NCBI RefSeq assembly: GCF_016651435.1
Contig: NZ_JAEPRJ010000001.1
Span: forward strand, 248,001-312,000
DNA: 64,000 bases
Origin: Catonella massiliensis
Lineage (GTDB): Bacteria; Bacillota; Clostridia; Lachnospirales; Lachnospiraceae
Direction of reading: 5' to 3'
Shown: one piece after another, positions 22,441 to 58,456 of the stretch
How the letters are laid out: each line of letters opens with the position of its first letter
Numbering within the stretch: position 1 is the stretch's first letter
The notes under the pieces: generated by a model
Database searches by the model: none
What the model saw: only the letters and a program-made list of their open reading frames with translations
What the model was told of the DNA's origin: nothing
Translations under genes and position numbers: made by a program

Positions 22441-22918
22441 TAGGGCTGATGTGTTGTCTGATGGCTAAGTCACGCCTCCACTAATAAATGTCCAGACTCG
22501 CTCCGGTTTTTCTGGAAGATGCCGGGTTAAGTTTTTGAATGATGACGAAAAACCTAATGCGCTCGCTTTTTGGCAGTGACTCACACTTAGCAAATTGCGA
22601 AGCAATGAAGCTAAGTGTGTAAGTCCTGCCTATATAATAGCCGTCCACGAGTGACGAGTGCGTAGCACGATGTCAGAGTGGAAACGGCGAACTATGCGGC
22701 ATTATTAGTTCCGGCTGTTTAACTGATAAGTCGGCAAAAACAAACACATCAGCCAAATGGGGCAGGTGGGGGAGTAGCTGTCTTTCATTTGGCATTTGAG
22801 TTATTATGTGTGTTAATTTAAGGTATCAGCTCCGAATGATAAATTCTAAGCGAGCGCATTAGGCGTAGCGAAGCGGATGCCGGAGCGAGTCTGAAATGTT
22901 ATCATTCGGAGCGTCACT
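22441..22918. repeat. Composite palindromic repeat, copy A
   Basis: A 478-base multi-hairpin element with no open frame. An outer inverted repeat (GGCTGATGTGTT at 22444, AACACATCAGCC at 22743) encloses a minus-oriented core module (about 22475-22712), a GCTAAGTGTG stem (22581-22619) and a GCCGT/ACGGC stem (about 22639-22688). A plus-oriented module follows (22828-22916): arms GCTCCGAATGATAA and TTATCATTCGGAGC around the core TAAGCGAGCGCATTAGG to GCCGGAGCGAGTCTG. Copies B and C are at 43741 and 57981. GC content is above the flanks. Confidence 0.85.
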
Positions 22919-23012
22919 TAGGCTGGTTTATGTAATTCGACAACTTAGAATTGTAAATTACTAATATCGAGCAGTATTAGAAATATTTAATGAGTAGGTA
23001 AAGAGGCAAAAA

Positions 23013-24449
23013 ATGGAAAATAAACTTATTAAAGAATTAAGAGAAGAAATATCAGAGAAAAAGGTACTCATTCTGGGCTTTGGAAGAGAAGGAAAGCTAA
23101 ATCTTGAGGTAGTGGCAAGGGCAGGAGGAGTTAGTGAAATTGCCATTGCGGATCAGAATGATATCAATACTCAGGAAGCAAGGGATATAGTCACTAAAGC
23201 AGGAAGTAAGGACATCGATATAAGTACAATAACGGGAGATGGCTATCTTTCACATATTGATGAGTTTGACATAGTACTTAAAAGCCCCGGTGTAGTTCTT
23301 CCTAAGCCTTTTTCAGAGTACAAGGCACTTGTAACTTCTCAGGCTCAGTATTTCCTGAAGGTATATGGAGGACAGACTATAGGAGTGACAGGTACAAAGG
23401 GAAAGAGCACTACCACAACCCTCATCTACCACGAACTAAAGGAAAACGGCTTTGATACAGTTTTGGTTGGAAATATAGGTATACCTGCCTTTGGACTCAT
23501 AGACGCGATAAAGGATGATACAAAGGTAGTATTTGAACTTTCCTGCCATCAGCTTGAATACGGTAAGTATTCTCCTCATATCGGTGTATATCTAAATGTC
23601 TTCCCTGAACACCTTGACCACTATGGCAGCTTTGAAAAGTACAGGGCTTCAAAGGAAAACATATACAGAAATCAAAAAGAGGGAGATAGGCTCTACTGCG
23701 GAACCGGGGTTATACCAAAGCAGGGTGAGGCTAAGTCCAAGGTAACTGTGGTTTATGACTTTAATAGAGATGATAAGAAGTTTGAAAATGACGAGCATGT
23801 CACTACATTTGTAGAAGGAGATTTCATATCCCACAAAACATTTACCTTTAGTATAAAAGAGCATGAAACAGCCTTAAGAGGCTTTCACAATTTCTTTGAT
23901 ATAGCTATAGCTTTCGCTGTCTGCACGGACCTTGGTGTAAGTATAGAAGGCTTTGAGGCTGCTCTAAGGACATATAAACCTCTCCCGCACCGCCTTGAAT
24001 TCGTGGGGAATGTAGACGGGATAAAATTCTACGACGATTCCATTTCCACAATTCCTGCTACAGCGATAGAAGCGATGAATACCATAAGTGATACTGATAC
24101 TATAATCATAGGAGGAATGGACAGAGGAATAGACTACGAGCCTCTTATAAAATACCTTGAAAAGTCTAAGGTTCCTAATATTATTCTTATGGAGACTACA
24201 GGGGCAAGGATTAGGGAGGAGATAAAGATGGGCTATATGGAGTTAAACAATTCAGACAGGCTTCATCTTGTGGACAATCTTTATGATGCAGTTAAGCTTG
24301 CAAAGAAGATAACTAAGAAGGGGAAATCCTGCATCATGAGTCCTGCTGCCGCAAGCTACGGCATATTTAAGAACTTTGAAGAAAGAGGAGAGACCTTTAA
24401 GAAGTATGTAAAAGAAGAAATTTCTCTAAAAAACGCAGAAAAAATTTAA
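23013..24449 (+). CDS. murD: UDP-N-acetylmuramoyl-L-alanine--D-glutamate ligase
   Basis: MurD adds D-glutamate to UDP-MurNAc-L-Ala in cytoplasmic peptidoglycan synthesis. The 478-residue protein has the three Mur-ligase domains: an N-terminal Rossmann part (VLILGFGREGKLN), the ATP P-loop GVTGTKGKSTTTTLIYHE near residues 123-140 with FELSCHQLE and the HLDHYGSFE segment, and a C-terminal part with FYDDSISTIPATAIEAM and IIGGMDRGIDY. The carbamylated Lys region is present. It is somewhat longer than the Escherichia coli enzyme. The gene follows composite repeat A and stands alone, away from the dcw cluster. Confidence 0.93.
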   Translation: MENKLIKELREEISEKKVLILGFGREGKLNLEVVARAGGVSEIAIADQNDINTQEARDIVTKAGSKDIDISTITGDGYLSHIDEFDIVLKSPGVVLPKPFSEYKALVTSQAQYFLKVYGGQTIGVTGTKGKSTTTTLIYHELKENGFDTVLVGNIGIPAFGLIDAIKDDTKVVFELSCHQLEYGKYSPHIGVYLNVFPEHLDHYGSFEKYRASKENIYRNQKEGDRLYCGTGVIPKQGEAKSKVTVVYDFNRDDKKFENDEHVTTFVEGDFISHKTFTFSIKEHETALRGFHNFFDIAIAFAVCTDLGVSIEGFEAALRTYKPLPHRLEFVGNVDGIKFYDDSISTIPATAIEAMNTISDTDTIIIGGMDRGIDYEPLIKYLEKSKVPNIILMETTGARIREEIKMGYMELNNSDRLHLVDNLYDAVKLAKKITKKGKSCIMSPAAASYGIFKNFEERGETFKKYVKEEISLKNAEKI

Positions 24450-24637
24450 AATAAAGAATTGATAATCGTGCTTTTTTGTTTTATCATGTGTTTTGCAGAG
24501 TCATAGGAGTTATTATGCGATGGCGCATCATAGAATGATGGTTGTTAACATTTAACATTGTAATGAGAAGATTGTGAATGCTTTTAGGGAATGCTCGGAT
24601 TGTTGGGGAAAATAAATAATAAGGATTCAGGTACAAA

Positions 24638-25822
24638 ATGAAAGAAAAGAAGAATCTTACACTGAATTATATATTTGTTCAGATTGGCATGTGGGCGATG
24701 TACGCTCCCCTTATGGGGTATACTTCAGTTTTCTTACTTGCAAAGAAATTTACCAATACAGAAGTTGGTATAATTTCAGGACTGGGCTGCGTGATATCCG
24801 CAGTATTACAGGCTTTGATATCTGCTTATGCGGATAAGGAGAATGCCAAGTCAGTTAAAACCCTTCTCACCATGATTGCGAGTTTCCAGCTTGTTCTAGC
24901 GGGTGTGCTTTTGGCACTTGGCAACCATCTCTTCTTAGTAGCCGGCATAGTATTTGGTGCACTTATCGCTATCATGCAGCTAATGGTGCCTCTTACTAAC
25001 TCTCTTGCTATGGAAATGATGAACCAGGGGAAGGAGATTAATTACGGAGTTGCCAGAGGGACAGCCTCCTTGCTTTATGCGGTACTTGTGAACTCGATGG
25101 GAGCTTTTGTAAAAGATGATGACCTAAGCATAGTTCCTATTGCAACTATGATATCAGCCTCCATTCTGCTTGCGGGCACTGTTTTCTTTCCTTTTAAGAA
25201 GGCCAAAAGACACCGGGAAGCTGTGGAGGAGAGGACTTATGAGACTAAGCCTTTCTTAGTGAAGTACCCTAAACTTGCTATATTCTTAGTGGGAGCTGTT
25301 TGTGCCTACGTAGGACATAATCTTATTAATACATTTTTATACCAGATTGTTATGCTTAAGGGCGGAACTCACACCAATATGGGTGTATGCCTTGCTTTGG
25401 CAGCAGTATTTGAAATACCTGTTATGTTTGGTTTTGCCTTCCTTGTCACAAAGAGAGACAGCAGCACCTGGGTAAGGGTTGGTAGTGTAGGCATTATGTT
25501 TAAGATAATCCTCACTCTTATTGTACCTAATGTGATGAGCCTTTACTTTGTACAGGTCTGTCAGTTGTTTGGCTTTGCAACCTTTGTAGTGGCTACAGTT
25601 TATTATGCAAACCACGCTGTAGAGGAATGTGATAGAGTTAAGGGACAGGCTTATATGACTATGTCTAATACACTTGGAATAGTTTTTGCTTCTCTTCTTG
25701 GTGGAGCACTTATAGATATTCTTGGTACAAATGGGATGCTTGTGGTAGGCTCCATAATTTCAGTTGTAGGCTGTGTATTAGTCTTCATATCGACTACTAA
25801 GGAAAAGAAGGAGGCTATATAG
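24638..25822 (+). CDS. MFS transporter
   Basis: A 394-residue carrier with 12 predicted membrane helices split by a charged loop near residues 190-210 (KKAKRHREAVEERTYE). The start MKEKKNLTLNYIFVQIGMWAMYAP and the internal ISGLGCVISAVLQAL pattern recall the LacY/PPP-like and nucleoside-symporter side of the superfamily, with LGNISGIVFASLLGG-like helix 11 replaced by NTLGIVFASLLGGALID. Substrate is unknown. The nearest downstream gene, lysA, has its own promoter only six bases after this stop, so the two are likely separate units. Confidence 0.85.
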   Translation: MKEKKNLTLNYIFVQIGMWAMYAPLMGYTSVFLLAKKFTNTEVGIISGLGCVISAVLQALISAYADKENAKSVKTLLTMIASFQLVLAGVLLALGNHLFLVAGIVFGALIAIMQLMVPLTNSLAMEMMNQGKEINYGVARGTASLLYAVLVNSMGAFVKDDDLSIVPIATMISASILLAGTVFFPFKKAKRHREAVEERTYETKPFLVKYPKLAIFLVGAVCAYVGHNLINTFLYQIVMLKGGTHTNMGVCLALAAVFEIPVMFGFAFLVTKRDSSTWVRVGSVGIMFKIILTLIVPNVMSLYFVQVCQLFGFATFVVATVYYANHAVEECDRVKGQAYMTMSNTLGIVFASLLGGALIDILGTNGMLVVGSIISVVGCVLVFISTTKEKKEAI

Positions 25823-25827
25823 AAAGA

Positions 25828-25856
25828 TTGACAAAGTCTATCTGTTATAATATCAT
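25828..25856 (+). promoter_or_regulatory. lysA promoter
   Basis: TTGACA at 25828-25833, 17-base spacer and TATCAT at 25851-25856, about 40 bases before the start codon. Confidence 0.6.
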
Positions 25857-25894
25857 ATTGATATTGTATACAAGTATACCGATGTGGAGGTTTT

Positions 25895-27157
25895 ATGAAA
25901 AAAATACCGTTTGTAACATTAGATGAGGTAAAGGAAATAGTAAAGACCTACCCTACTCCTTTCCACATATATGATGAAAAGGGGATTAGGGAAAATGCTA
26001 GAAAGCTAAAAAAAGCTTTTGGCTGGAATAAGGGCTTTAAGGAGTACTTTGCAGTAAAGGCTACACCTAATCCATATATTTTAGATATTCTAAAAGAAGA
26101 GGGCTGTGGAACAGATTGTTCATCTCTTGCAGAACTTATGATGAGTGAGGCCTGTGGAATAACAGGAGAAAATATCATGTTTTCGTCAAATGTTACTCCT
26201 GCTGAAGAATATGTAAAGGCAAGAGAGCTTGGGGCTATCATCAATCTTGACGATATAACCCATATAGACTTTCTAAAAGACTGTGCAGGCATACCTGAGA
26301 AAATAAGCTGCCGTTACAATCCGGGCGGAGTATTCAAGGTAAGCAATGACATTATGGATAATCCAAATGATGCAAAGTATGGTATGACCAAAGCACAGAT
26401 GTTTGAGGCATTTACCCGTCTTAAAGAGCTTGGCGTAAAGGAATTTGGCATACATTCATTCCTTGTAAGCAACACAGTAACCAATGACTATTACCCTATG
26501 CTTGCAACGGAACTTTTTAAGCTGGCTGTAGAGCTTAAGGAAAAATGTGATGTTCATATTGGCTTTATTAATCTTTCGGGAGGTGTGGGAGTTCCTTACA
26601 GACCTGAACAGGAGCCAAATGATATCTTTGTCATAGGTGAAGGAGTAAGAAAAGCCTTCGAAGAAATCCTTTTGCCAAATGGTATGGGGGATGTAAGTAT
26701 ATTTACAGAGCTTGGAAGATTTATGCTTGCTCCATACGGACATCTTGTAACTAAGGCTATACACGAGAAGCATATCTACAAAGAGTATATAGGTGTGGAT
26801 GCCTGTGCGGCAAACCTTATGAGGCCTGCTATGTACGGAGCTTATCATCATATAACGGTGCTTGGTAAGGAAGATGAGAAGGAAGAGTTTAAGTATGATG
26901 TGACCGGCTCACTCTGTGAGAACAATGACAAGTTTGCGGTAGACAGGATGCTTCCTCATATTGATATGGGAGACTATCTGGTCATCCACGATACAGGGGC
27001 CCACGGATTTGCAATGGGCTACAACTACAATGGAAGGCTCAGATCGGCAGAGCTTTTAAGGACAGAGGCGGGGGGAGTTAAACTTATAAGAAGGGCTGAA
27101 ACACCTGCTGATTATTTTGCTACCTTGGACTATCCGGGGCTTAGCAAAACAAAGTAA
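25895..27157 (+). CDS. lysA: Diaminopimelate decarboxylase
   Basis: A 420-residue fold-type III PLP enzyme that decarboxylates meso-diaminopimelate to lysine. The PLP Lys is residue 55 in YFAVKATPNP, followed by GTDCSSLAEL, the HIGFINLSGGVG glycine loop that holds the phosphate, the ELGRF segment and the C-terminal active-site pair CENNDKF and GAHGFAMGYNYNG. The GSLCEN motif supplies the Cys from the second subunit of the dimer. It is a stand-alone gene just before the flagellar cluster. The exact decarboxylase type is inferred from family resemblance; related carboxynorspermidine enzymes are shorter. Confidence 0.88.
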   Translation: MKKIPFVTLDEVKEIVKTYPTPFHIYDEKGIRENARKLKKAFGWNKGFKEYFAVKATPNPYILDILKEEGCGTDCSSLAELMMSEACGITGENIMFSSNVTPAEEYVKARELGAIINLDDITHIDFLKDCAGIPEKISCRYNPGGVFKVSNDIMDNPNDAKYGMTKAQMFEAFTRLKELGVKEFGIHSFLVSNTVTNDYYPMLATELFKLAVELKEKCDVHIGFINLSGGVGVPYRPEQEPNDIFVIGEGVRKAFEEILLPNGMGDVSIFTELGRFMLAPYGHLVTKAIHEKHIYKEYIGVDACAANLMRPAMYGAYHHITVLGKEDEKEEFKYDVTGSLCENNDKFAVDRMLPHIDMGDYLVIHDTGAHGFAMGYNYNGRLRSAELLRTEAGGVKLIRRAETPADYFATLDYPGLSKTK

Positions 27158-27197
27158 AAAAATTTTTCGTTTTTTGAGATTTTTAAAAGAAAAAGAC

Positions 27198-27224
27198 TAA
27201 AGTAATGATAATTTTTGCCGATAA
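27198..27224 (+). promoter_or_regulatory. Sigma-28 promoter of flgM
   Basis: TAAAGTAA, an 11-base spacer and a perfect GCCGATAA (27217-27224), the flagellar sigma consensus. Confidence 0.85.
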
Positions 27225-27272
27225 ATAAATCAGAGATACTAATTGAACTTGGTTAGGAGATTTATTTATCGG
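27218..27272 (+). promoter_or_regulatory. Long inverted repeat in the flgM leader
   Basis: CCGATAAATAAATC (27218-27231) pairs perfectly with GATTTATTTATCGG (27259-27272). The left arm includes the sigma-28 -10 box. The right arm may be a second, decayed copy of the box or a regulator site. Confidence 0.6.
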
Positions 27273-27316
27273 TTAATTTATATCCAAACCAAAACAGATT
27301 AATGGAAGGTGATGTT

Positions 27317-27586
27317 ATGAGAGTAGATAATTTTGGACAGATTTCAAACGCTTACAATGTTAGCAAGGCAAGAAAGCCTGAAGCCGTGGCTAAGACTGAG
27401 AGAGGCAGTGACACAGTTGAAATCTCTGATGCAGCTAAGACATTTCAGGTAGCAAGGACAGCGGTGAATTCTGCTTCTGATGTCCGTACTGACAAGGTTG
27501 CACAGCTTAAGTCTGCAATTGAGAACGGTACTTACTCTGTTTCTGCAAGAGATATAGCTGATAAACTTCTAGAGGGACGTTTTTAG
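27317..27586 (+). CDS. flgM: Anti-sigma-28 factor FlgM
   Basis: An 89-residue protein that holds flagellar sigma factor inactive until the hook is finished and FlgM is exported. The N-terminal half is unstructured with MRVDNFGQISNAYN; the C-terminal half carries the sigma-binding helices (VEISDAAKTFQVA, RTDKVAQLKSAIENGTYSV, ARDIADKLLEG). The ATG at 27317 is preferred because GGAAGGTGATG lies just ahead; an ATG at 27302 would place the ribosome site inside the gene. It is transcribed from a sigma-28 promoter, the usual feedback, and begins the flagellar operon. Confidence 0.92.
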   Translation: MRVDNFGQISNAYNVSKARKPEAVAKTERGSDTVEISDAAKTFQVARTAVNSASDVRTDKVAQLKSAIENGTYSVSARDIADKLLEGRF

Positions 27587-27620
27587 AATAGAAGATGGCA
27601 AATAAATAATCGGAGGAACT

Positions 27621-28133
27621 ATGGCGAGCTTAATTGAAGAACTAATCATGGTCCTAGGCGAAGAGGAAAGGATTTACAGTGAAATCATTCCTCTCGCTGA
27701 GAAAAAAACCCGAATAATTGTAAAAAATGACCTCCAGTCTTTAACCAGCATTACTGAGGAAGAGCAGGCTTTAGTGAGCAGAATCAGCAAACTGGAAAAG
27801 AAAAGACAGGAGGTCATTCGTAATATAGGCGTAGTTATGAATAAGAAGGAAAGTGAACTAAACTTCCTTTCCATCATCAATCTGATAAGAGGGCAGGAAA
27901 GAGAGCAGCAGGAGCTTAGGGTGATACACGATAAGCTTAAAAGCACTATTAGCCTTCTAGCTATGCTTAATGAGAGAAATCAGATGCTTATAAAGCAGTC
28001 GCTCGAAATGATTGATTTTGATATGAATCTGCTTCAGAGCCTGAGGACCTCTCCGGGAGTAGGACAGTATAATACATCCTCAGAAGTAGAACTTCAGGGT
28101 GAAAATAGCGGGATGTTTGATGCTAAGAGTTAA
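27621..28133 (+). CDS. flgN: FlgN family export chaperone
   Basis: A 170-residue, almost fully helical protein between flgM and flgK, the standard FlgN place. FlgN chaperones hook-associated proteins FlgK and FlgL to the flagellar export gate. The sequence shows heptad-like runs (LIEELIMVLGEEERIYSEI, ITEEEQALVSRISKLEKKRQE, LRVIHDKLKSTISLLAMLNERNQMLIKQSLEMIDF) and a polar, disordered tail. Conservation of the family is low, so position carries most of the weight. Ribosome site CGGAGG. Confidence 0.88.
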   Translation: MASLIEELIMVLGEEERIYSEIIPLAEKKTRIIVKNDLQSLTSITEEEQALVSRISKLEKKRQEVIRNIGVVMNKKESELNFLSIINLIRGQEREQQELRVIHDKLKSTISLLAMLNERNQMLIKQSLEMIDFDMNLLQSLRTSPGVGQYNTSSEVELQGENSGMFDAKS

Positions 28134-28153
28134 TTACAGCAGGGAGATATAAT

Positions 28154-30052
28154 ATGAGTTTAATGACAAGCTTTGGCGTGGGAGTTTCTGGCCTTAACAC
28201 GGCCCAGAATTCGCTTAACGCGACTGCACACAACTTAACCAACGTTGATACCAAGGGCTATGTGCGCCAGCAGGTGCTTACTGTTGATAAGGAATACGAG
28301 AGAACGGCGACACTTAGATATATGGACCAGACCGGCCACGGCTCTATCGTAGATAAAATCAGACAGCTAAGAGACAGGTTCTTAGATGATTCCTTTAGAA
28401 GGGAGAGCGGAAGACAGGGATTCTACAATGCACAGGCAGAAATAGTGACAGAAGTAGAAAATCTTTTTGGCGAGCTTCAGGGTACAACCTTCCAGAGCTC
28501 GATGCAAGATCTCTGGAAATCCGTTCAGGAGCTTCAGAAGGAGCCTGAGAGCGTGGTCGCAAGAACTTCTTTGGTTGAGACAGCGGGAACTTTTATAGAG
28601 CGTTGTCATACCATTACTACTCAGCTTAAAAGCTTAAGACAGGATATCAATCTTAAGATAGAAAACAACGTGAAGCGTATCAATGAGATTGGAGTAAGGC
28701 TTGATCAAATAAATGATGAAGTCCGCAAGGAAGAGGTCATCGGTCAGTCAGCAAACGACTACAGAGACGAGAGAAACAAGCTTCTTGATGAGCTTGGAAG
28801 CTATGTGAAGGTTAGCTACAAAGAAGTCAAAGACGGCTCTGTACTTGTAACAGTAGAGGGAACGCAGTTTGTAACCGAATTCGGAGTAAATGAGATAGGC
28901 CTTAAGACCACTGATGATGAACTTAAATTACACACTCCTGTGTGGAACTTTGATATAAATGATGATAAGGAACCAAGAGAAGTATTTAACTTTGACTTCC
29001 CTCCAACATCAGCAGCAGATACAGATATAGGTTCACTTAAGGGCCTCCTTCTTGCAAGGGGCAGGCAGGGAAGATATACAGACATTCCTGTACAGCCAAA
29101 GCCTGAGGACTATGAAGAGGGCGAAGATGACGAGCATTATATAAGTGCTATGAGAGCCTTTGAGCAGGCAAAGGTTAACTACAACAATACAGTAGCGCCT
29201 TCTCTTTTAACCAATACAGAGGCTCAGTTTGACCAGTTAATCCACGGTCTTACTACTATGATAAATGACATACTTGCACCTAACCTTACTGCAACCTGGA
29301 CAGACGGAGGAGTTCCGGTGTGGAAGAATTCAGAAGGCAAGGTGCTTGAGGGAGATGAGATTCCTAATATAGATATTTCAGATCTCGAAGACTATAAGAT
29401 AGAGGAGAAAGATGCCCTAGGCAATCCTACAGGAAGGTACAAGGTATCCATCCTCGATGTTAAGAATGCACCGGTGAGTGCAGATAAAACTAAAACACCG
29501 GGTAATGCACTCTTTGATAGAAAGAGCACGCCTCGTTATAAAGAGCTTGATGTGGAGATGGACGGCAAGAAGGTAATGCTCTACAACAGTGAGGACTATG
29601 ATCCAAACTATGAGGGCTCTAAGTACTCGATGTTCTCTATGGGAGAAATTGAGGTAAATAAGCAGATAAGGGAAAATGTTTCTCTCATACCTTTAAGCTA
29701 TAACACCAACACAGGCGATTACAGTATGGATATAGCGGCAAAGCTAAACAAAGTATGGGATGAAAAATTTGCTGTATTAAATCCAAATACACTTACTAAG
29801 AATACTTTTATGGAGTATTATACAGCTTTTACTTCTGAGGTAGCCAATACAGGCCACACCCTTAAAGCTATGGCTAAGAGCCAGGAAACCACAACCCAGA
29901 GTGTGGACAACCAGAGGCAGCAGGTGCTTGGGACCTCTTCAGATGAAGAGCTTACACATATGATTAAATTTCAACAGGCCTTTAATGCAGCATCCAGGTA
30001 TATTACTGTTATAGATGAGATGCTTGAGCACGTTGTAACCAGACTTGGTTAA
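28154..30052 (+). CDS. flgK: Flagellar hook-associated protein 1 (FlgK), first copy
   Basis: A 632-residue protein that forms the junction between hook and filament. The N-terminus carries the rod/hook signature GVSGLNTAQNSLNATAHNLT, then NVDTKGYVRQQV; the C-terminus has the matching QTTTQSVDNQRQQVLGTSSDEELTHMIKFQQAFNAASRYI helix pair. The middle (about 230-520) is a variable, surface-exposed domain. It is exported through the flagellar type III apparatus without a cleaved signal. It sits directly upstream of a second FlgK-like gene that differs widely in the middle, so one may play a separate junction role. Confidence 0.93.
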   Translation: MSLMTSFGVGVSGLNTAQNSLNATAHNLTNVDTKGYVRQQVLTVDKEYERTATLRYMDQTGHGSIVDKIRQLRDRFLDDSFRRESGRQGFYNAQAEIVTEVENLFGELQGTTFQSSMQDLWKSVQELQKEPESVVARTSLVETAGTFIERCHTITTQLKSLRQDINLKIENNVKRINEIGVRLDQINDEVRKEEVIGQSANDYRDERNKLLDELGSYVKVSYKEVKDGSVLVTVEGTQFVTEFGVNEIGLKTTDDELKLHTPVWNFDINDDKEPREVFNFDFPPTSAADTDIGSLKGLLLARGRQGRYTDIPVQPKPEDYEEGEDDEHYISAMRAFEQAKVNYNNTVAPSLLTNTEAQFDQLIHGLTTMINDILAPNLTATWTDGGVPVWKNSEGKVLEGDEIPNIDISDLEDYKIEEKDALGNPTGRYKVSILDVKNAPVSADKTKTPGNALFDRKSTPRYKELDVEMDGKKVMLYNSEDYDPNYEGSKYSMFSMGEIEVNKQIRENVSLIPLSYNTNTGDYSMDIAAKLNKVWDEKFAVLNPNTLTKNTFMEYYTAFTSEVANTGHTLKAMAKSQETTTQSVDNQRQQVLGTSSDEELTHMIKFQQAFNAASRYITVIDEMLEHVVTRLG

Positions 30053-30082
30053 GGCCTATTCGTGAACAAATAGGAGAGATAT

Positions 30083-31939: not shown

Positions 31940-31976
31940 TTTCAAAGTGATAGTGATATAGAAAGGACTTAAGGCT

Positions 31977-43686: not shown

Positions 43687-43718
43687 AACCTCCCATCATT
43701 TTGGTGGGAGGATTTTGT
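43687..43718 (+). terminator. Terminator after guaA
   Basis: CCTCCCA (43689-43695) with TGGGAGG (43705-43711), then ATTTTG. Similar hairpins recur at 46547 and 57919. Confidence 0.8.
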
Positions 43719-43740
43719 GGATATAGAGTCACAAATTCAA

Positions 43741-44228
43741 ATTTGTCGAGCTGATGGATTTGTTTTCCACGCTAAGTTACGCCTCCACTAATAAATGTCC
43801 AGACTCGCTCCGGTTTTTCTGTAAGATGCAGTTGTAATATGGCTTTGTTGACGAAAAACCTGATGCGCTCGCTTAGGCATTATTAGTTCCGGCTATTTGA
43901 TTGATAAGTCGTCACAAACAAACACATCAGCCACATGGGGGGGGGCAGGTGGTAGTGGCTACCTTTAATTTGGTAATCGGTTGTTATTTATATAAATTTA
44001 AGGTATCAGCTCCGAATGATAAATTCTAAGCGAGCGTATTAGGCGGAGCGAAGCGGAGGCCGGAGCGAGTCTGAAATGTTATCATTCGGAGCGTCACTGT
44101 GTGGTAAGATAACAGCAAAAACTGATAATGCCTAAGCGAGCGCGTTAGGCGTAGCGAAGCGGATGCCGGAGCGAGTCTGGACATTTATCAGTTTTTGCGT
44201 CTACTTTGTAACTTATTTTAGCCCTACA
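43741..44228. repeat. Composite palindromic repeat, copy B
   Basis: A second member of the element seen at 22441. The outer inverted repeat is CTGATGGATTTGTTTT (43751) with AACAAACACATCAG (about 43917-43930). A minus module at about 43779-43890 lacks the inner GCTAAGTGTG and GCCGT stems of copies A and C. Two plus modules follow: 44007-44096 with stem GCTCCGAATGATAA, and 44112-44198 with the same core inside a different stem, GCAAAAACTGATAA paired with TTATCAGTTTTTGC. It contains no gene. Confidence 0.85.
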
Positions 44229-44255
44229 AATTAAAATTTAATGGAGGACTGTTGA

Positions 44256-45566: not shown

Positions 45567-45656
45567 ACTCATAGAGCGTGAGTATAAAGAAAGCTCAATA
45601 GAAGATTTGGTCATAGAGCGTGACCAAGTAAAATAAAAGAAAAGCTCACTGAGAAG
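45567..45656 (+). ncRNA. tenpI: Type III antitoxin RNA, two tandem repeats (TenpI/ToxI type)
   Basis: Repeat 1 begins ACTCATAGAGCGTGAGT (45567-45583) and repeat 2 GGTCATAGAGCGTGACC (45609-45625). The loop CATAGAGCGTG is constant while the stem is ACTCA/TGAGT in one and GGTCA/TGACC in the other, a paired change. Each unit continues with AAAGAAAGCTCA- and AGAAAAGCTCA-type sequence and AGAAGA. In known type III systems the toxin cuts this RNA into units that each bind one toxin. A terminator and the toxin follow directly. Confidence 0.85.
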
Positions 45657-46546: not shown

Positions 46547-46579
46547 AAAGCCTTCCGTCTTTTATGGTGGGAGGCTTTT
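46547..46579 (+). terminator. Terminator-like hairpin before the GNAT gene
   Basis: AAAAGCCTTCC and GGGAGGCTTTT flank a T/A-rich loop. The same hairpin plus about 45 bases of following sequence recurs at 57919. Confidence 0.65.
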
Positions 46580-46621
46580 GTGGAAAATAGAGAATGGTAG
46601 ATTAGAAGTTGTGGAGTATGA

Positions 46622-47872: not shown

Positions 47873-47932
47873 GTTATTTTATCAGACTTGAGGTATCATT
47901 TTGTGACTTCAAGTAAAAACATGGAGGTATTT

Positions 47933-48826: not shown

Positions 48827-48833
48827 TATCGGG

Positions 48834-48918
48834 CATCAGCTCCGTTTTTGCGTTGCTCAGAGGCGCATTGCGAAGCAGCTAAGCCTATGAGCAATGCAAA
48901 AAGGTAGGAGCGTCACTT
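48834..48918. repeat. Short palindromic repeat module
   Basis: Immediately after the ORF6N stop: CAGCTCCG, then TTTTTGCGTTGCTCA (48845) pairing with TGAGCAATGCAAAAA (48887-48901), and GGAGCGTCACTTAG. The outer words CAGCTCC and GGAGCGTCACT are the same as the ends of the larger repeats' plus module, so it is a relative with another core. Confidence 0.6.
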
Positions 48919-49036
48919 AGTAAGATAAAAATCAGAATTAAAAGACATGCTTGAAGGCTGTAGGTTGAAAATTCAAAATAGATAAGACATAATTAGTGTC
49001 ATAATGTAAATGAATTAAGGGGAAAATGGAGGTATT

Positions 49037-49414: not shown

Positions 49415-49538
49415 TATTTGTGCTTGCAAAATGCTTGTAAAGTTTAGAAATGGGTCACCTGTAGAACAATTCTTTGGGTGATTTTTTTATTATATTGAAA
49501 ATCCTCGCTCTTGCTGGATTGAGAACTTCAATTCAACA

Positions 49539-49568
49539 TTGAAAGATAGACTAATTAGTAGTATACTA
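49539..49568 (+). promoter_or_regulatory. Promoter of the restriction operon with a palindromic operator
   Basis: TTGAAA (49539-49544), a 17-base spacer and TATACT (49562-49567). TAGTATACTA (49559-49568) is a perfect palindrome over the -10 box, a likely binding site for the XRE protein encoded next. Confidence 0.6.
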
Positions 49569-49613
49569 TTTTTTGATATTGTTGCTAAGATAATGGCAAT
49601 TTGGAGGACTGAA

Positions 49614-49823
49614 ATGTATGTAAGCTATAAAAAACTTTGGAAGATGCTCATTGACTTGGATATGAGTAAAACAGAGTTGATTCAGAAATCAAAAATCACA
49701 ACAAATGTAATGGCACATATGGGAAAAAATGAAGATATCCGTGTGGAGTCTTTAGTAAAAATATGTACAGCGCTTGGCTGTACTTTTGATTATATAGCAG
49801 AAATTATTCCTGATAAAAAGTAA
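49614..49823 (+). CDS. Small XRE-family controller protein
   Basis: A 69-residue helix-turn-helix protein (MYVSYKKLWKMLIDLDMSKT, then LIQKSKITTNVMAHMGK, with the recognition helix and DIRVESLVKICTALGCTFDYI). Its size and place just before hsdM, 15 bases apart, suit a controller protein that times the restriction genes. The ATG at 49614 follows TTTGGAGGA; the longer frame starting at 49539 would run through the promoter. Confidence 0.8.
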   Translation: MYVSYKKLWKMLIDLDMSKTELIQKSKITTNVMAHMGKNEDIRVESLVKICTALGCTFDYIAEIIPDKK

Positions 49824-49838
49824 AGGAGTTTTAATGCA

Positions 49839-51578: not shown

Positions 51579-51579
51579 T

Positions 51580-52776
51580 ATGGAGACAAGAGAAGTAAAA
51601 TTAGGCGATATTGTTAAGTATAACAAAGGATATGCGTTCAAAAGCAGTGAATATACTGACGAAGGTGTAATGGTTGTTCGAGTAACGGATTTTACATTAG
51701 ACTCTATTAGTGATGTTGATGCAGTATATTTAGCACCAGACGATAGGTATGATAAATTTATTCTGAAAACTAATGATATTTTAATTCAAACGGTAGGATC
51801 GTGGGAAAATAATCCCAATTCAATTGTTGGAAAAGTTGTAAGAGTACCGAACCAGTGTGATAGTGCATATCTCAACCAAAATATTGTTCGAATTATACCT
51901 AATAATGATTTTAATAATACATATTTATTTTATGCACTTAAGGCAAATCAATTCTCAACATACTGTGTTTTACGTGGACAAGGCGCAGCTAATCAAGCAA
52001 GTATTACCTTAGCTACTATTTTTAGATTTAAGTTCAAAGCACATAATTTTGCTGAACAAAAAAGGATTGCAGATATTCTGTCTGCCTACGACAACCTTAT
52101 CGAAAACAACAACAAGCGTATCAAGTTGTTGGAGCAAATGGCAGAGAATTTATATAAAGAATGGTTTGTAAGATTTCGATTTCCGGGATATGAGGATGTG
52201 GAGTTTGAAAATGGAATTCCTAAGGGATGGAAAATTGAAAGCCTCTCAGATATTGCCAATATTATTATGGGACAAAGTCCTGAATCTGAAAACTATAATA
52301 CTAATTGCATAGGATTGCCTTTTCATCAAGGCGTAGGAAGTTATGGCGATTTCTATCTAATTGATGGTGTCTATAGTACGAAAGGAAATCGCATTGCTGA
52401 GGCTAATAGTATTATTTTTAGTGTTCGAGCACCTGTTGGAAGAATCAACATAACATTAAATAAAATAATTTTAGGCAGAGGTGTGGCTGGCATTAATTCT
52501 GTAAAAGGATATAATGCATATTTGTTGTGGATGTTGAAGAACCGGTTTCAGCAGGAAGATATTATTGGTAATGGATCGATTTTTGCATCAGTCACAAAAA
52601 AAGAGTTATTTGGATTTAAAATGTTCATGCCAAATGAGGATCTTATACAAAAATTTGATTCTATTGCATCTGGGATAGAAAGTGTGATGCGAAATATCTC
52701 ATTGATTAATAGTAATCTTAAGAAGCAACGAGACATGCTCTTACCACGCCTAATGAGTGGAAAGCTTGAAGTTTAA
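51580..52776 (+). CDS. hsdS: Type I restriction-modification system specificity subunit
   Basis: A 398-residue DNA-recognition subunit with two target-recognition domains (about 5-165 and 215-380), each followed by a conserved helix. The first TRD reads KLGDIVKYNKGYAFKSS; the middle helix ENNNKRIKLLEQMAENLYKEWFVRF and PGYEDVEFENGIPKGW join to the second TRD (LSDIANIIMGQSPESENYNT). The ATG at 51580 starts just after the hsdM stop; a GTG at 51571 inside hsdM is an alternative. Target sequence cannot be read from this. Confidence 0.94.
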   Translation: METREVKLGDIVKYNKGYAFKSSEYTDEGVMVVRVTDFTLDSISDVDAVYLAPDDRYDKFILKTNDILIQTVGSWENNPNSIVGKVVRVPNQCDSAYLNQNIVRIIPNNDFNNTYLFYALKANQFSTYCVLRGQGAANQASITLATIFRFKFKAHNFAEQKRIADILSAYDNLIENNNKRIKLLEQMAENLYKEWFVRFRFPGYEDVEFENGIPKGWKIESLSDIANIIMGQSPESENYNTNCIGLPFHQGVGSYGDFYLIDGVYSTKGNRIAEANSIIFSVRAPVGRINITLNKIILGRGVAGINSVKGYNAYLLWMLKNRFQQEDIIGNGSIFASVTKKELFGFKMFMPNEDLIQKFDSIASGIESVMRNISLINSNLKKQRDMLLPRLMSGKLEV

Positions 52777-52788
52777 GGAGGGGTCCAT

Positions 52789-55700
52789 ATGCGTAATTTT
52801 ATATCTGAAGACGATATAGAACAGGCTATACTTTCAAAATTAAAAGCTGAACCATTTCAATATGATATCCTCATTTGTGATGCTGATCCAAGCAAGCGTG
52901 ATGATTTGAATGATGGCACAGGAAGGGATTTTAAGAAAGAATGTGTTCTTCCTGATGTTATGCTGTCTTCTCTTAAGCGTATTAATCCAACTATCGAAGA
53001 AGATAAAATTAAAGAGATAGTAAAGACATTAAGGCAAGATTATTCAGGAACGGACGTTGTAGATACTAACTACAAATTATACAGGCAAATTCGTAATAAT
53101 ATAAAAATCAGTATTCGCAGAAACGGAAAAGAGGACTTTGATTTTGTAAAATTGATAGACTTTGAACATCCGGAGAATAATACTTTCACAGCGGTATCGC
53201 AGATGTGGATTCAGGGGAAGGTCTACTACAGAAGACCGGATATCCTTATCTTCATCAATGGTATGCCTCTTGTGTTTATCGAACTAAAAAACAGCATTGT
53301 TAAGGTTGAAGAAGCCTACAACAAGAATCTGAAAGATTACATGCGAGACATTCCGAATCTCTTTGCATTTAATCAGATTTGTGTACTTTCAAATGGTTTG
53401 GAGACGAAGCTTGGTGCATTTAATGCAAGCTATGACTATTTCTTTGAATGGCTCAAGATTGACAGTGAAAAGGAAAAACCGGATAGAGAAGCTATTCTCT
53501 CGGCAGATAGTGTAAAGAACAGCTCAGTCAGATATTTTGTCGATGGTCTTCTTAACAAAGATAGATTGATTGACTATATTGAAAACTTTATTCTCTTTGA
53601 AAATCAGAGAATAAAGATTATCGCTAAGAACCATCAGTACTTAGGTGTAAATAACCTAATCGAATCAGTGGAAAACAGAAAAGAGCTTAATGGTAAGCTT
53701 GGTGTCTTCTGGCATACACAGGGTTCAGGTAAATCCTATTCTATGGTTATGTTTGCCCGTAAAGTGAAGCGTAAGATTCAAGGTAATTTCTCGTTTCTCG
53801 TTATTACAGACCGTGAGGATTTGGATACTCAGATTCATAAGAACTTCGTACGTACTGAGGTTATTGGTTCTAAAGAAGAATGCCAGCCTAAGGATAGTAA
53901 GCAGTTAAGAGAATTTCTAACTACTAATAAGGCTTTTATCTTTACTTTGATTCATAAGTTCAGATACGATAAGACAAAGAAATATCCCGTTCTTTCTACT
54001 CGTGACGATATTATTGTCCTTGTTGATGAAGCACATAGAACGCAGTATAAGGATTTGGCAGAGAATATGAGAACCGCACTTCCGAATGCTAATTTTGTTG
54101 CATTTACCGGAACGCCACTCCTTGGTACAAAACGTCTTACAAATCAGTGGTTTGGAGATTATGTATCAGAGTATAATTTTGCACAGTCTGTTGAAGACGG
54201 TTCTACAGTACCTTTATTCTATTCCAGACGAGTTCCGGAAGTTGGGCTTGAGAATGATTTCCTTGATGATGACATTGTGGACATTATCGAAGAAGAAAAT
54301 TTAAACGAGGATGAAACACGTCTGTTAGAAAACGCATCTTCTCGTATTTTAGAGGTCATCAAGCGTGATGACAGACTGGATAAGGTTGCACAGGATATTG
54401 CCTATCACTTCCCAAGACGTGGATTCCTTGGAAAAGCTATGGTTATATCTGTCGATAAATATACTGCTGTCAAAATGTATGATAAGGTTCAGCATTACTG
54501 GGCTATAGAAAAGCAGAACATCATGAAAGAGCGAAATATAGCTTCTACTAAGGAAGAACGTGATCGGCTCACTTGTATTCTTGCTTATATGAATAAGGTT
54601 GAAATGGCTGTTATCATTTCAGAGGAAAATGATGAAGAAGCCAAGTTTGCAAAGCAGGGCTTACGGATATCTGAGCATCGTGCAAAGATGAAAGAAATCA
54701 CACCAGATGGCAGAGATATTGAGGATAGATTCAAAGATCCTAATGATTCGTTGCAGCTCGTATTCGTGTGTGCGATGTGGCTGACAGGATTTGATGTAAA
54801 GAATCTTTCTACACTCTACTTGGACAAGCCGATGAAAGGTCATACCCTAATGCAGGCGATTGCTCATGCCAACAGAGTGTATCCGGGTAAAACTGCCGGT
54901 ATCATTGTTGATTATGTCAACGTGTTTAAATACATGAAGAAGGCATTAACAGAATATGCCACCGGTGATGATGGAACAGAATTCCCGGCAAAGGATATTG
55001 ACCAGCTAATAGGCTATATTGACGCTACTATTGAAGAGGCGGATTCCTTCCTAAGGTCAATGAGCATCGACCTAGAAAAGATAGTTGCTGATTCTAATAT
55101 ACTGGATAAACTGGATGCATTAAGAAGTGCTTATGACACTATCGTTGCCAAAGATGATAATAAAGAGAAGTTCAAAGTCATTCTCAATACTTTGACGAAT
55201 CTCTATGAAGCATCAAAGCCGGAAATCTTTGAGAAAAATTGGAGCAGCGATAAGTTTGCACCGCTTGTGTATCTGCATGGTCTTTTTTATCACGCTATTG
55301 ATGATGAAAAAATCGCTCGTGCAAGACAGAGAATGAATCAGGTACTGGATGGCAGTGTGACCGCAAATCGGGAATTTGTCAGCTATGTTCGTGAAGAACC
55401 ACAGTATATGATTAAAGGTACAAAGGCAATTGATCTTTCTAAGGTAGATGTGGAACAGCTACGAAAAGAAATCAAACTTGCCAAGTATAAGGCTATTGAA
55501 ATCAACGATTTGAAGGAGTTTATTGAGCAAGCACTCGAACAGATGCTTAATAAAAACTGTACAAGAACAAAATTTTCAGAAAGGTTCAAGCATATTATTG
55601 ATTCCTATAATGCAGGTGGAACTGAAAACGAGGATTATTACGAGCAATTGGTAAAACTTCTTGAAGAACTTCGTAAGGAAGATAATCGTGCAAATACAGA

Positions 55701-56022
55701 AGGTCTTACAGAAGAAGAGCTGGAAATCTATGATTTGTTGATTGCAGGAAAGAAGTTGACACAAGCTGAGGAGCAAAATGTAAAGCTATCTGCTAAGAAT
55801 CTGTATAGGAAATTGGTGGATAATCGCAGTAGCCTTCTAGTAGTAGATTGGTACAAAGATGAACAGCCATGTGCTAAGTTGAAACATGAGGTGGAGCTAT
55901 CTCTGAATGATGATCTGCCTGAAAGCTATGATAAAGCAGCGTTTGATTCTAAGGTATCTCTGCTTATGAACCATTTTGTGGATATGGCAGTTCAGGGATA
56001 TGGATGGATTGGAGTTGCATAG
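52789..56022 (+). CDS. hsdR: Type I restriction-modification system restriction subunit
   Basis: A 1077-residue translocase and nuclease. The N-terminal PD-(D/E)XK site has Asp151 in RRPDILIF and FIELKNS with Glu165 and Lys167. The DNA-translocase core follows: Walker A in WHTQGSGKSY (residues 309-317), DEAH at 413-416, FTGTPLLGT, and later helicase motifs with VVCAMWLTGFDV- and MQAIAHANRVYPGK-type residues. Intact across its whole length. It starts after AAGGAGG, 13 bases after hsdS. Confidence 0.95.
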   Translation: MRNFISEDDIEQAILSKLKAEPFQYDILICDADPSKRDDLNDGTGRDFKKECVLPDVMLSSLKRINPTIEEDKIKEIVKTLRQDYSGTDVVDTNYKLYRQIRNNIKISIRRNGKEDFDFVKLIDFEHPENNTFTAVSQMWIQGKVYYRRPDILIFINGMPLVFIELKNSIVKVEEAYNKNLKDYMRDIPNLFAFNQICVLSNGLETKLGAFNASYDYFFEWLKIDSEKEKPDREAILSADSVKNSSVRYFVDGLLNKDRLIDYIENFILFENQRIKIIAKNHQYLGVNNLIESVENRKELNGKLGVFWHTQGSGKSYSMVMFARKVKRKIQGNFSFLVITDREDLDTQIHKNFVRTEVIGSKEECQPKDSKQLREFLTTNKAFIFTLIHKFRYDKTKKYPVLSTRDDIIVLVDEAHRTQYKDLAENMRTALPNANFVAFTGTPLLGTKRLTNQWFGDYVSEYNFAQSVEDGSTVPLFYSRRVPEVGLENDFLDDDIVDIIEEENLNEDETRLLENASSRILEVIKRDDRLDKVAQDIAYHFPRRGFLGKAMVISVDKYTAVKMYDKVQHYWAIEKQNIMKERNIASTKEERDRLTCILAYMNKVEMAVIISEENDEEAKFAKQGLRISEHRAKMKEITPDGRDIEDRFKDPNDSLQLVFVCAMWLTGFDVKNLSTLYLDKPMKGHTLMQAIAHANRVYPGKTAGIIVDYVNVFKYMKKALTEYATGDDGTEFPAKDIDQLIGYIDATIEEADSFLRSMSIDLEKIVADSNILDKLDALRSAYDTIVAKDDNKEKFKVILNTLTNLYEASKPEIFEKNWSSDKFAPLVYLHGLFYHAIDDEKIARARQRMNQVLDGSVTANREFVSYVREEPQYMIKGTKAIDLSKVDVEQLRKEIKLAKYKAIEINDLKEFIEQALEQMLNKNCTRTKFSERFKHIIDSYNAGGTENEDYYEQLVKLLEELRKEDNRANTEGLTEEELEIYDLLIAGKKLTQAEEQNVKLSAKNLYRKLVDNRSSLLVVDWYKDEQPCAKLKHEVELSLNDDLPESYDKAAFDSKVSLLMNHFVDMAVQGYGWIGVA

Positions 56023-56037
56023 TACTTGGGAGACAGG

Positions 56038-56790
56038 ATGTATTTATTAAGATATGCGTTTGCTTATGCGTTTGAATATAGCAGAATGTATCTGGATGTA
56101 TTAGCTCAGATGGATGATGTTAATAATATTTCGGTAACATCAGTAGGATGTGGTTCGATGATAGATTATCGGCCATTGGTACATGCATTAGAAATGAAGC
56201 GTAAAATAGATTGTAGCATAAGATATGTTGGAATAGATAAAATTGACTGGAACTACAAAATTCGTCAAAGACAAAATGATGAATTACATTATTTAATTAG
56301 AAATGCGGCTGATTTTTTCACAAATAATAGTCGATTTATTTCCGATGTGTATTTTTTCCCGAAGTCAATTAGTGAGTTCTCTGATAGTGAACTGAATGTT
56401 ATGGCAAATAGCTTATTATCAAAGAAGATACAGAAAGATAGATTTTTTGTTTGTATATCACTTAGGGAAGATCAGGGAAGTATGGATAGAGATATACAAA
56501 AAACAAAATGCTTAATCGAAGCGATAGGTAAGAATGGGTTTAAAACAAAATAGCCTTATACTCAATATACATATTTTGTTTGTGATAATGGCATTGTCAC
56601 ATTAGATAATGAGTTTAAGTATCCACCAGATGCATTGGAATTTGTGAAAAATCTAAATATAGAATGTGCGAATTATAAGATTCAAAAAATGAATTGCCAA
56701 TCTGATTGTCAGAAATATTTAAGGAGATGGCCCATTTTAAAAGTAGGGCATATTAGATATCAGGTAATTATGTTTGAAAGGGTAGATTAG
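56038..56790 (+). pseudogene. Methyltransferase-like gene of the restriction operon, with one in-frame TAG
   Basis: A 250-codon gene, 15 bases after hsdR, with one in-frame stop (TAG at 56551-56553) after 171 residues. Reading through, the rest (about 79 codons) ends exactly at the base before the next gene. The front has VTSVGCGSMIDYRPL and VGIDKIDW, an S-adenosylmethionine-style glycine loop and acidic strand, so it is a Rossmann-fold methyltransferase-like protein. The tail, from TQYTYFVCDNGIV to RYQVIMFERVD, reads as good protein. Either a nonsense mutation or readthrough accounts for the TAG. Family not recognised. ATG at 56038 follows GGGAG. Confidence 0.6.
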
Positions 56791-57732
56791 ATGATATTAA
56801 GCGTAAGTAGAAGAACGGATATTCCTAATTATTATTCGGAATGGTTCTATAATAGAATAAAAGAAGGATTTTTATATGTTCGTAATCCTATGAATGCTCA
56901 TCAGATAAGTGAAATAAAAATCACTCCAGATGTTGTAGATTGCATAGTGTTTTGGACAAAGAATCCGTTGCCAATGATAAAGAGAATAGACGAGATAAAA
57001 GATTATAATTATTATTTTCAATTTACATTAACTGGATACGGAAATGATGTTGAGGCTAATTTGCCAAGTAAAAAAACAAAAATGATACCGGTATTTCAAG
57101 AGTTATCTGAGAAAATTGGTAAACAAAAAGTGATTTGGAGATACGATCCTATATTTTTTTCTGATAGATATACGAAAGAATATCATTTGAAGGCATTTAA
57201 AAGTATTGCAGAGGCTTTAAATGGATATACAGAAAAGTGCGTGATTAGTTTTGTTGATATATATACTAAAAATAAAAAAAATATGGAAGGATTGTCAAGT
57301 TATGAATTAAATGATAATGAACTGAGAGAATTTGCCAAGGAATTAAGCAAAATGGCAGCGGATAATAATATTAAAATTGGAAGTTGTGCAGAAAAAATAA
57401 ATTTGGACGATTGTGGTATAGTTCATAATTGTTGCATAGATAGAGAATTGATTGAAAAAATTATTGGATGTAAAATCAATGTTTCCAAAGATAAAAATCA
57501 GCGGATAGAATGCGGATGTGTTGAAAGTGTTGAAATAGGTGCTTATAATACATGTAAAAATGGATGTGCATATTGTTATGCTAATTATAGTTCAAAAAGC
57601 GTAGAAACAAATGCTGCCAAATATGATCCGTTGTCACCAATTCTATGTAGTCAAGTTCAAGAAGATGACAAAATATCGATTAGAAAAGTTGAATCATTAA
57701 AACAAGCACAGCTTAGTGTTTTTGATATGTGA
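56791..57732 (+). CDS. DUF1848 protein, Cys-rich, next to the restriction operon
   Basis: A 313-residue protein of the DUF1848 family, beginning right after the stop of the previous gene. The start ILSVSRRTDIPNYYSEWF and the core VFWTKNPLPMI, FTLTGYGND and WRYDPIFFSDRYT are diagnostic. The C-terminal half is Cys-rich: a CGC motif and, at about 250-262, CKNGCAYCYAN, a spacing like an iron-sulphur site. The family is often described as radical-SAM-like, from memory; its reaction is unknown. Its tight linkage to hsdR and the methyltransferase-like gene suggests a role with the restriction system. Confidence 0.75.
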   Translation: MILSVSRRTDIPNYYSEWFYNRIKEGFLYVRNPMNAHQISEIKITPDVVDCIVFWTKNPLPMIKRIDEIKDYNYYFQFTLTGYGNDVEANLPSKKTKMIPVFQELSEKIGKQKVIWRYDPIFFSDRYTKEYHLKAFKSIAEALNGYTEKCVISFVDIYTKNKKNMEGLSSYELNDNELREFAKELSKMAADNNIKIGSCAEKINLDDCGIVHNCCIDRELIEKIIGCKINVSKDKNQRIECGCVESVEIGAYNTCKNGCAYCYANYSSKSVETNAAKYDPLSPILCSQVQEDDKISIRKVESLKQAQLSVFDM

Positions 57733-57918
57733 GAGCAATATTACAGAGTATCTTTGGCTCCATTTTGGCTCTGAAAATTTGGTAGTGGCATAAAAACGAG
57801 AGCGATTTTTGAAAAATATGGATAATAAATTCATTAAAAATCATAGAAAAACAATCAGTTCAAGCTATCCATACCCGAACTGGAGTAATATTTCTGTAAA
57901 TAAACATTTTAAGTTGTT

Positions 57919-57952
57919 TAAGCCTTCCATCATTTTGGTGGGAGGCTTTTGT
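57919..57952 (+). terminator. Terminator-like hairpin before repeat copy C
   Basis: AAGCCTTCC and GGTGGGAGGCTT around a T-rich loop, then TTGTAG. It repeats the hairpin at 46547, including the following 45 bases. The stretch 57733-57918 holds no gene. Confidence 0.6.
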
Positions 57953-57980
57953 AGAAATATTGTGTGGTAGATTTGAAGTT

Positions 57981-58456
57981 GTAGGGCTGATGTGTTTGTT
58001 TTATTACTTAGTCACGCCTTCGCTGATAAATGTATAGACTTGCTCCGGTTTTTCTGTAAGATGTTGTTATAATTTGGTGCTGTTGACGAAAAACCTAATG
58101 CGCTCGCTTTTTGGCAGTGACTCACGCTTAGCGAATTGCAAAGCAATAAAGCTAAGTGTGCTAGTCCTGCCTATATAATAGCCGTCCACGATTGACGAGT
58201 GCTTGCACGAAGTCAGAGTGGAAACAGTGAACCATGCGGTATTATCAGCTCCGGCTGTTTAATTGATGAATAATTGAAAACAAACGCATCAGCCACATAG
58301 GGGCAGGTAGTAGTGGCTGCCTTTAATTTGATATTCGAATTATTATTTTCATAAATCTATGGTGCCAGCTCCGAATGATAAATTCTAAGCGAGCGCGTTA
58401 GGCGTAGCAAAGCGGATGCCGGAGCAAGTCTGAAATGTTATCATTCGGAGCATCAC
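57981..58456. repeat. Composite palindromic repeat, copy C
   Basis: Third copy of the 22441 element. Outer inverted repeat GGCTGATGTGTTTGTTTT (57984) with AAAACAAACGCATCAGCC (58277-58294). The minus module's outer stem is GCTGATAA with TTATCAGC, where copy A has ACTAATAA with TTATTAGT, a paired change. Inner stems near 58121-58160 (GCTTAGC/GCTAAGT) and 58181-58230 match copy A. A plus module ends at 58366-58453. Confidence 0.85.

What the first reader, a model, noticed from the sequence alone, without database searches (positions are those of the whole stretch)
22441..58456. A family of about 480-bp composite palindromic repeats in three copies (22441, 43741, 57981)
Seen directly: three non-coding blocks share the same order of hairpins, an outer inverted repeat (GGCTGATGTGTTT-type ends) and plus and minus modules. 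They lie downstream of hppA, guaA and the DUF1848 gene, not inside genes, and carry no transposase. A and C are alike; B has lost two inner stems and gained a second plus module. The layout recalls composite REP/BIME or MITE-type mobile hairpins, but this family is not one I recognise.
Basis: partly seen in the sequence, partly recalled or inferred. Interest (0 to 1): 0.8.

Follow-up and report, generated by a model that had tools for sequence, protein, structure and literature searches.

The report
REP-like hairpin pairs in mobile elements
Three non-coding blocks in this Catonella genome belong to a dispersed family of small mobile-looking elements that carry inverted pairs of an unusual hairpin, found so far almost only in this genus; it is a new variant of a familiar kind of bacterial repeat rather than a new kind of system.

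Summary
The blocks (about 22439-22953, 43733-44239, 57969-58470) are copies of a dispersed family; 21 copies were counted as composites and 61 hairpin modules found in the stretches held (lower bounds). Inside, modules point outwards. Each has a variable but complementary outer stem, a conserved internal loop (CTAAGCGAGCGCATTAGG / CCGGAGCGAGTCTG) and a one-sided tail, GCGTNAC by a loose pattern in 70 of 78 modules. At a site shared with Catonella morbi the core differs at 4 of 57 columns, while 6 of 17 stem pairs changed on both sides (helix set by hand). C. morbi lacks the element at the sites of copies A and B. An exact pattern over 84,980 species hit only C. morbi. No Y1 (RAYT-type) transposase is in this genome; no longer element with these ends was found. 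Best reading: a REPIN- or BOX-like non-autonomous element with MITE-type ends, moved by an unknown enzyme.

The parts
22439..22953 (+). Copy A of the composite element (long form with extra inner stems), between hppA and a Mur ligase gene; left end degenerate, right end CAATTCTAAGTTGTCGAATT on the minus strand
22481..22568 (-). Minus module of copy A (long inner loop)
22833..22907 (+). Plus module of copy A
22444..22754 (.). Inner inverted repeat of copy A (GGCTGATGTGTTG ... CAAACACATCAGCC)
   Evidence: read directly
43733..44239 (+). Copy B, with both terminal inverted repeats, between guaA and an alpha/beta hydrolase gene
43788..43887 (-). Minus module of copy B
44013..44087 (+). First plus module of copy B
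44120..44192 (+). Second plus module of copy B (different outer stem)
43693..43711 (+). Terminator-like hairpin (CCATCATTTTGGTGGGAGG) just upstream of copy B
57969..58470 (+). Copy C (long form), downstream of the DUF1848 gene; left end AGATTTGAAGTTGTAGGGCTGATG, right end no longer recognisable
58024..58109 (-). Minus module of copy C
58372..58446 (+). Plus module of copy C
57927..57945 (+). Terminator-like hairpin upstream of copy C, same sequence as at copy B
46550..46614 (+). Similar terminator followed by a lone left-end-like sequence (AGATTAGAAGTTGTGG) with no element behind it; similarity with C. morbi ends here

Best explanation
A family of non-autonomous mobile elements, standard form about 400 bp. 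SHOWN: terminal inverted repeats (AAATTCTAAKTTGT type), two or three copies of one hairpin module in inverted orientation with their one-sided tails outwards, an inner inverted repeat and a conserved spacer, no gene. Copies lie between genes, in 8 of 22 examined within 7 bases of a neighbouring ORF end or overlapping it. Some sites are shared with C. morbi, others are occupied in one species only. INFERRED: an enzyme supplied in trans recognises the folded single strand (internal loop plus tail, as RAYTs recognise REP hairpins) and copies or moves the inverted pair as one unit, leaving no target duplication. Single modules would be leftovers or captured halves. The enzyme is not identified and may be lost from this genome. 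Once inserted, the long hairpins probably also influence the ends of neighbouring transcripts.
For: Copies genome-wide. 14 copies with both ends; the 8 short ones are 393-400 bp, mean pairwise identity 87%, range 79-96%. Tail GCGTNAC, loose pattern, in 70 of 78 modules (no shuffle control). Structure on 14 chosen sequences: 91.6% of cells paired against 78.9% in shuffles, 27 double-change cells against 8.0 in shuffles and 0-7 when slid, 9 pairs with a change on both sides against 5.7 (7 of 500 shuffles reach it). Orthologous site between ilvC and recJ: of 17 stem positions 6 changed on both sides, 10 same, 1 lost pairing (hand-set helix). Second orthologous site beside rsmG: 2 of 12 shared pairs changed on both sides. 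C. morbi lacks the element at the hppA and guaA sites. C. morbi has its own copies and end variant, a perfect 23-bp repeat at both ends of one copy. One partial copy in another genus.
Against: No transposition was seen; no same-species empty site could be obtained. No target duplication. No candidate enzyme: PF01797 absent, no longer element with the same ends. Number of further pair types is no higher than in shuffles (12 against 11.6). Single modules fold only 1.4 to 4.6 sd below shuffles (6 tested), and automatic folding of the ilvC-recJ pair shared 3 pairs and no double change. Inverted arms can stay matched by template-switch repair without selection (recalled). The hppA and guaA intergenic regions of C. 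morbi differ otherwise too, so loss cannot be told from gain; the site of copy C could not be compared.
Confidence: 0.6

Rival explanations
1. Ordinary MITE: a deletion derivative of an insertion sequence with the same terminal repeats, moved by a double-strand DDE transposase; the hairpins are passengers.
For: Terminal inverted repeats, size, intergenic position, no gene. C. morbi has a second, shorter element (3 copies) with different ends and one module, as if modules ride on different ends.
Against: No target-site duplication in 14 copies; no longer element with these ends found in this genome, C. morbi or three other members of the genus (at most 3 mismatches).
Confidence: 0.2
2. A host-functional structured element (RNA or DNA hairpin at gene ends, for transcript stability, termination or topology) that is kept by selection and only secondarily dispersed.
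For: Core nearly unchanged while stems change in a compensating way at the ilvC-recJ site; location between genes; conserved inner stems at the rsmG site.
Against: Both orientations relative to genes occur. Only 3 of 12 C. morbi loci have a counterpart among the loci held here. G001, G002 and G004 of the same genus have none by BLAST. No Rfam match, for copy B even at E up to 1.
Confidence: 0.12
3. The modules belong to rpn-type genes (PDDEXK_2, PF12784), which would encode the mobilising nuclease.
For: In this genome 9 of 14 PDDEXK_2 loci have a module on the 5' side of the gene, on the opposite strand.
Against: 0 of 8 in C. morbi, and 0 of 6 scanned loci in G001, G004 and G021 (one further locus dropped for lack of an ORF; two of the six hold under 200 bases upstream). 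Six of the nine are one tandem array, and the 2069-kb copy seems to share the array's second, degenerate module, so this looks like one event multiplied by gene duplication.
Confidence: 0.05
4. Recent segmental duplication of one intergenic region.
For: Some flanks are duplicated (e313/e315, e2479/e2658, e2746/e2806, e2806/e2810).
Against: 10 of 20 copies share no flank with any other; short copies differ by up to about 20%; a second species has the family.
Confidence: 0.01

Closest known systems
REPIN / BIME (inverted doublets of REP hairpins; PMC3116915, abstract and outline seen; PMC3733652, abstract and passages seen)
   Same: Inverted pairs of hairpins with an unpaired tag at one end only, extragenic, whole unit folds as one long hairpin; singles also occur. 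The tail resembles the CGTC tag of CGTC-REPs, a class that PMC3733652 says apparently lacks a dedicated transposase.
   Different: Module is 59-101 nt (profile matches) instead of 20-40; the conserved part is an internal loop while the stem varies; bounded by terminal inverted repeats; tens of copies; no RAYT in the genome.
BOX elements of Streptococcus pneumoniae and S. suis (PMC3049150, passages seen)
   Same: Modular composite with variable number of inner modules (reported 67-637 bp), terminal inverted repeats, lone modules elsewhere, stop codons of genes inside some elements, slow turnover.
   Different: Target duplications are reported for BOX and none is seen here; module plan and orientation differ; BOX ends are said to resemble ISSpn2, while no parent was found here. 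Sequences were not compared.
Prokaryotic MITEs in general (PMC10969869, passages seen)
   Same: 50-500 bp size class, terminal inverted repeats, intergenic, strong secondary structure, no gene.
   Different: No target duplication, no related insertion sequence found; some copies slightly longer.

Membership tests
REP/BIME with RAYT | Short palindrome of 20-40 bp | tested here: not met
   Modules span 59-101 nt in the profile matches (partial ones are shorter), with a large internal loop.
REP/BIME with RAYT | Inverted doublets in extragenic space | tested here: met
   Minus then plus module with tails outward in the composites; between genes.
REP/BIME with RAYT | Unpaired GTAG or CGTC tag at one end | tested here: inconclusive
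   One-sided tail GCGTNAC by a loose pattern in 70 of 78 modules; the first C belongs to the stem in many copies, and G or A in place of the last C of the tag is common.
REP/BIME with RAYT | Y1 (RAYT) transposase in the genome | tested here: not met
   PF01797: 0 matches in the window's genome; it rang in 5 of 14 control genomes. Not tested in C. morbi.
MITE | Terminal inverted repeats | tested here: met
   Both ends present in 14 copies; perfect 23-bp ends in one C. morbi copy.
MITE | Target-site duplication | tested here: not met
   14 copies, boundary shifts 0-8 on each side, lengths 2-9: best excess about 1 copy over mismatched pairs.
MITE | Autonomous relative with the same ends | tested here: not met
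   End patterns found the known small elements, lone or partial ends and chance matches (own genome; C. morbi, G001, G002, G004, G205; the short-element end). At most 3 mismatches, so a diverged partner could be missed.
BOX element | boxA/boxB/boxC sequence homology | not tested
   No BOX sequence was fetched; likeness is of plan only.
Known RNA family | Match to an Rfam model | tested here: not met
   None at gathering score at the window's three copies; none at E up to 1 for copy B.

The most novel reading that the evidence does not exclude
The module is a new structure-recognised motif: an asymmetric conserved internal loop with a one-sided tail, displayed on a stem of free sequence. A non-Y1 enzyme or a host protein reads the folded strand, and the motif is shared by elements with different terminal repeats.
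Probability: 0.2. Interest if true: 0.7.

Novelty: new variant of a known kind. Interest (0 to 1): 0.45.

Why it matters
CGTC-tagged REPs are described as apparently lacking a dedicated transposase (PMC3733652, abstract). A family with sharp ends, a polar hairpin and copies both shared and unshared between two species gives a compact case for finding out what moves such hairpins when no RAYT is present. The reversal of the usual REP pattern (loop conserved, stem free) points to recognition of shape.

Tried and rejected
Y1/RAYT partner: searched, absent from this genome. Rpn/PDDEXK_2 link: pursued because a tandem array of six such genes is interleaved with modules; not supported outside this genome. 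Target duplications and palindromic targets: scanned in 14 copies, none enriched; inverted flanks of 6 bases in 1 copy. Parent element by its ends: searches (own genome; C. morbi, G001, G002, G004, G205; short-element end in G000-G004): none. The two near-matches were read: a decayed left part and a lone end. Known RNA: none. Phage or plasmid cargo: an exact module pattern found none in viral contigs, and copy B found none in the phage and plasmid records. Paralogous empty sites by comparing flanks: no clean empty site. Automatic folding of the ilvC-recJ pair gave 3 shared pairs and 0 double changes; the 6-of-17 count rests on a helix set by hand. DNA folding parameters gave branched folds of low ensemble frequency (2 sequences). 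Papers: the listings (at most 10-15 titles each, open-licence PubMed Central only) showed no title or abstract start about this family. Copies left out of the 21: partial places at 1717, 2523, 2723, 2724, 2737 and 2805 kb; kept among the 21 are some incomplete ones (1708, 2365, 2746 and 3006 kb).
Full report
Observation. The three blocks were read directly. Each holds a minus module, an inner inverted repeat (GGCTGATGTGTTTG/CAAACACATCAGCC type), a G-rich spacer and a plus module. No ORF of 100 aa or more overlaps them. BLAST of copy C against the window's own genome (3.12 Mb in 3 contigs) gave 59 pieces (40 of 51 candidates scored, so a lower bound). The plus-module pattern gave 34 matches and 0 for the reversed control.

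Anatomy. Printing 26 places with flanks showed that complete copies reach beyond the inner repeat to terminal inverted repeats AAATTCTAAKTTGTNGGGCT...AACTCGACAAATTAGAATTT. The end pattern gave 46 matches against 10 for the control; of the matches with 0-2 mismatches, those at 71, 2478 and 2737 kb do not lie at an end of a complete copy. 14 copies have both ends (393-562 bp). The 8 short ones are 393-400 bp, 79-96% alike (mean 87%), and their consensus folds end to end. In 13 of the 21 composites the two halves abut without the inner segment of about 128 bp that A and C carry. Copy B and the copies at 2814 and 2840 kb have a second plus module.

The module. In the loci held, a profile found 61 modules in this genome and 17 in C. 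morbi. The constant part is CTAAGCGAGCGCATTAGG on the 5' side and CCGGAGCGAGTCTG on the 3' side, with variants. Outer and inner stems differ in sequence but stay largely complementary. On 14 chosen sequences 91.6% of cells pair (78.9% in shuffles, 36-46% when slid) and 27 cells changed on both sides (8.0 in shuffles, 0-7 when slid); the number of further pair types is not above shuffles (12 against 11.6). The structure was set after seeing the sequences. Six single modules fold 1.4 to 4.6 sd below shuffles. 70 of 78 modules are followed on the 3' side by GCGTNAC, by a loose pattern without a shuffle control, often as GCGTSACTTAG; one of the 70 (C. morbi, ilvC-recJ site) matches inside its own stem. 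So the module is polar, and the modules of a composite have their tails outwards.

Relatives. Of 41 genomes (own plus 40 relatives), 3 matched by BLAST: this one, G003 of the same genus, and one weak 35-base match in G021. G003 has the contig lengths of Catonella morbi ATCC 51271, the only species hit by an exact pattern over the 84,980-species collection (the own genome may be left out there). The covariance model R1 on 299 family genomes found this genome and one other genus, G205, with one partial copy. There the filters were strict, 16 candidates per listed genome were scored, and G003 seems not to have been drawn (299 genomes in 298 genera, the shared genus being taken up by G000 and G004). 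Viral contigs by exact pattern, phages and plasmids by BLAST of copy B: none.

Shared and unshared sites. C. morbi has the hppA-to-Mur-ligase and guaA regions without the element, but these intergenic regions also differ otherwise; the site of copy C could not be compared. Of 12 C. morbi loci examined, 3 have a counterpart among the loci held: a single module between ilvC and recJ, a composite between rsmG and a NUDIX-like gene, and the left end of the copy at 2375 kb. The names ilvC, recJ, rsmG and NUDIX are my reading of the translations, not a family search. At ilvC-recJ the core differs at 4 of 57 columns (alignment), while of 17 stem positions 10 are the same, 6 changed on both sides and 1 lost pairing (helix set by hand; automatic folding chose another fold for one species). 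At the rsmG site 2 of 12 shared pairs changed on both sides.

Insertion habits. Copies lie between genes in both orientations; 8 of 22 lie within 7 bases of a neighbouring ORF end or overlap it, and in e2806 and e2840 the neighbour's stop codon overlaps the terminal repeat (simple ORF finder). No target duplication of 2-9 bases at boundary shifts of 0-8 was enriched. Nineteen of 21 composites lie in about 35% of the contig (beyond 2.36 Mb or before 0.32 Mb; binomial p about 2e-7), with limits chosen after seeing the data.

Mover. No PF01797 match in this genome. PF12784 matches: 14, of which 9 have a module on the 5' side, but 0 of 8 in C. morbi, so this looks like duplication of one unit. No longer element with the same ends was found.

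Interpretation. The parts best fit a REPIN-like inverted pair of tailed hairpins inside MITE-like ends, with BOX-like modularity. Papers used: PMC3733652 (abstract and passages), PMC3049150 (passages), PMC10969869 (passages) and PMC3116915 (abstract and outline). Membership in REP/BIME-with-RAYT and in classical MITE each fails at least one tested feature, so neither name is claimed. Inferred and not shown: movement itself, recognition of a folded single strand, and the identity of the enzyme.

Noticed in passing
window 46550-46614 and G003:C6 near 63735 (L157): A similar terminator hairpin and a lone left-end-like sequence without an element, at a shared site; similarity between the two species stops there and a different gene follows in each. 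In the sequences held, 6 of 6 terminators of this type are followed by an end-like sequence (held loci are biased to element sites).
   Followed up: partly
L031 (G000:C1:430000-448000): Tandem array of six PDDEXK_2 (rpn-type) genes in units of about 2 kb, interleaved with eight single modules; one clear degenerate second module (others weaker).
   Followed up: partly
G000:C1 2.36-3.01 Mb and 0.27-0.315 Mb: Strong clustering of composite copies in about a third of the chromosome; cause unknown (origin position not determined).
   Followed up: partly
L115 / L154 (G205): One partial copy (right half) in another genus of the family, which suggests horizontal transfer.
   Followed up: partly
L084 (two places) and L086, C. 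morbi: A second, short element of roughly 180 bp with different ends (GAATTTGCAAATAACAAAGC side) carrying one module; three copies, no longer relative with this end found.
   Followed up: yes
L112 4743-4930 and about 13670: Left half of an element fused to an rve_3-type integrase remnant at a GGTGGCTGT junction; a second such remnant is cut by the left end of another copy.
   Followed up: partly
L081 about 2340-2395, C. morbi: Left end of an element appears to lie inside a remnant of an rpn-type gene, at an AAATT sequence.
   Followed up: no
L010 and L012 (copies at 2479 and 2658 kb): The two copies share the first 39 bases of their right flanks and a duplicated stretch of about 460 bp further out.
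   Followed up: partly
window 15182-15279, 45603-45654, 1119-1212: THF riboswitch, 6A RNA and skipping-rope RNA by Rfam.
   Followed up: no
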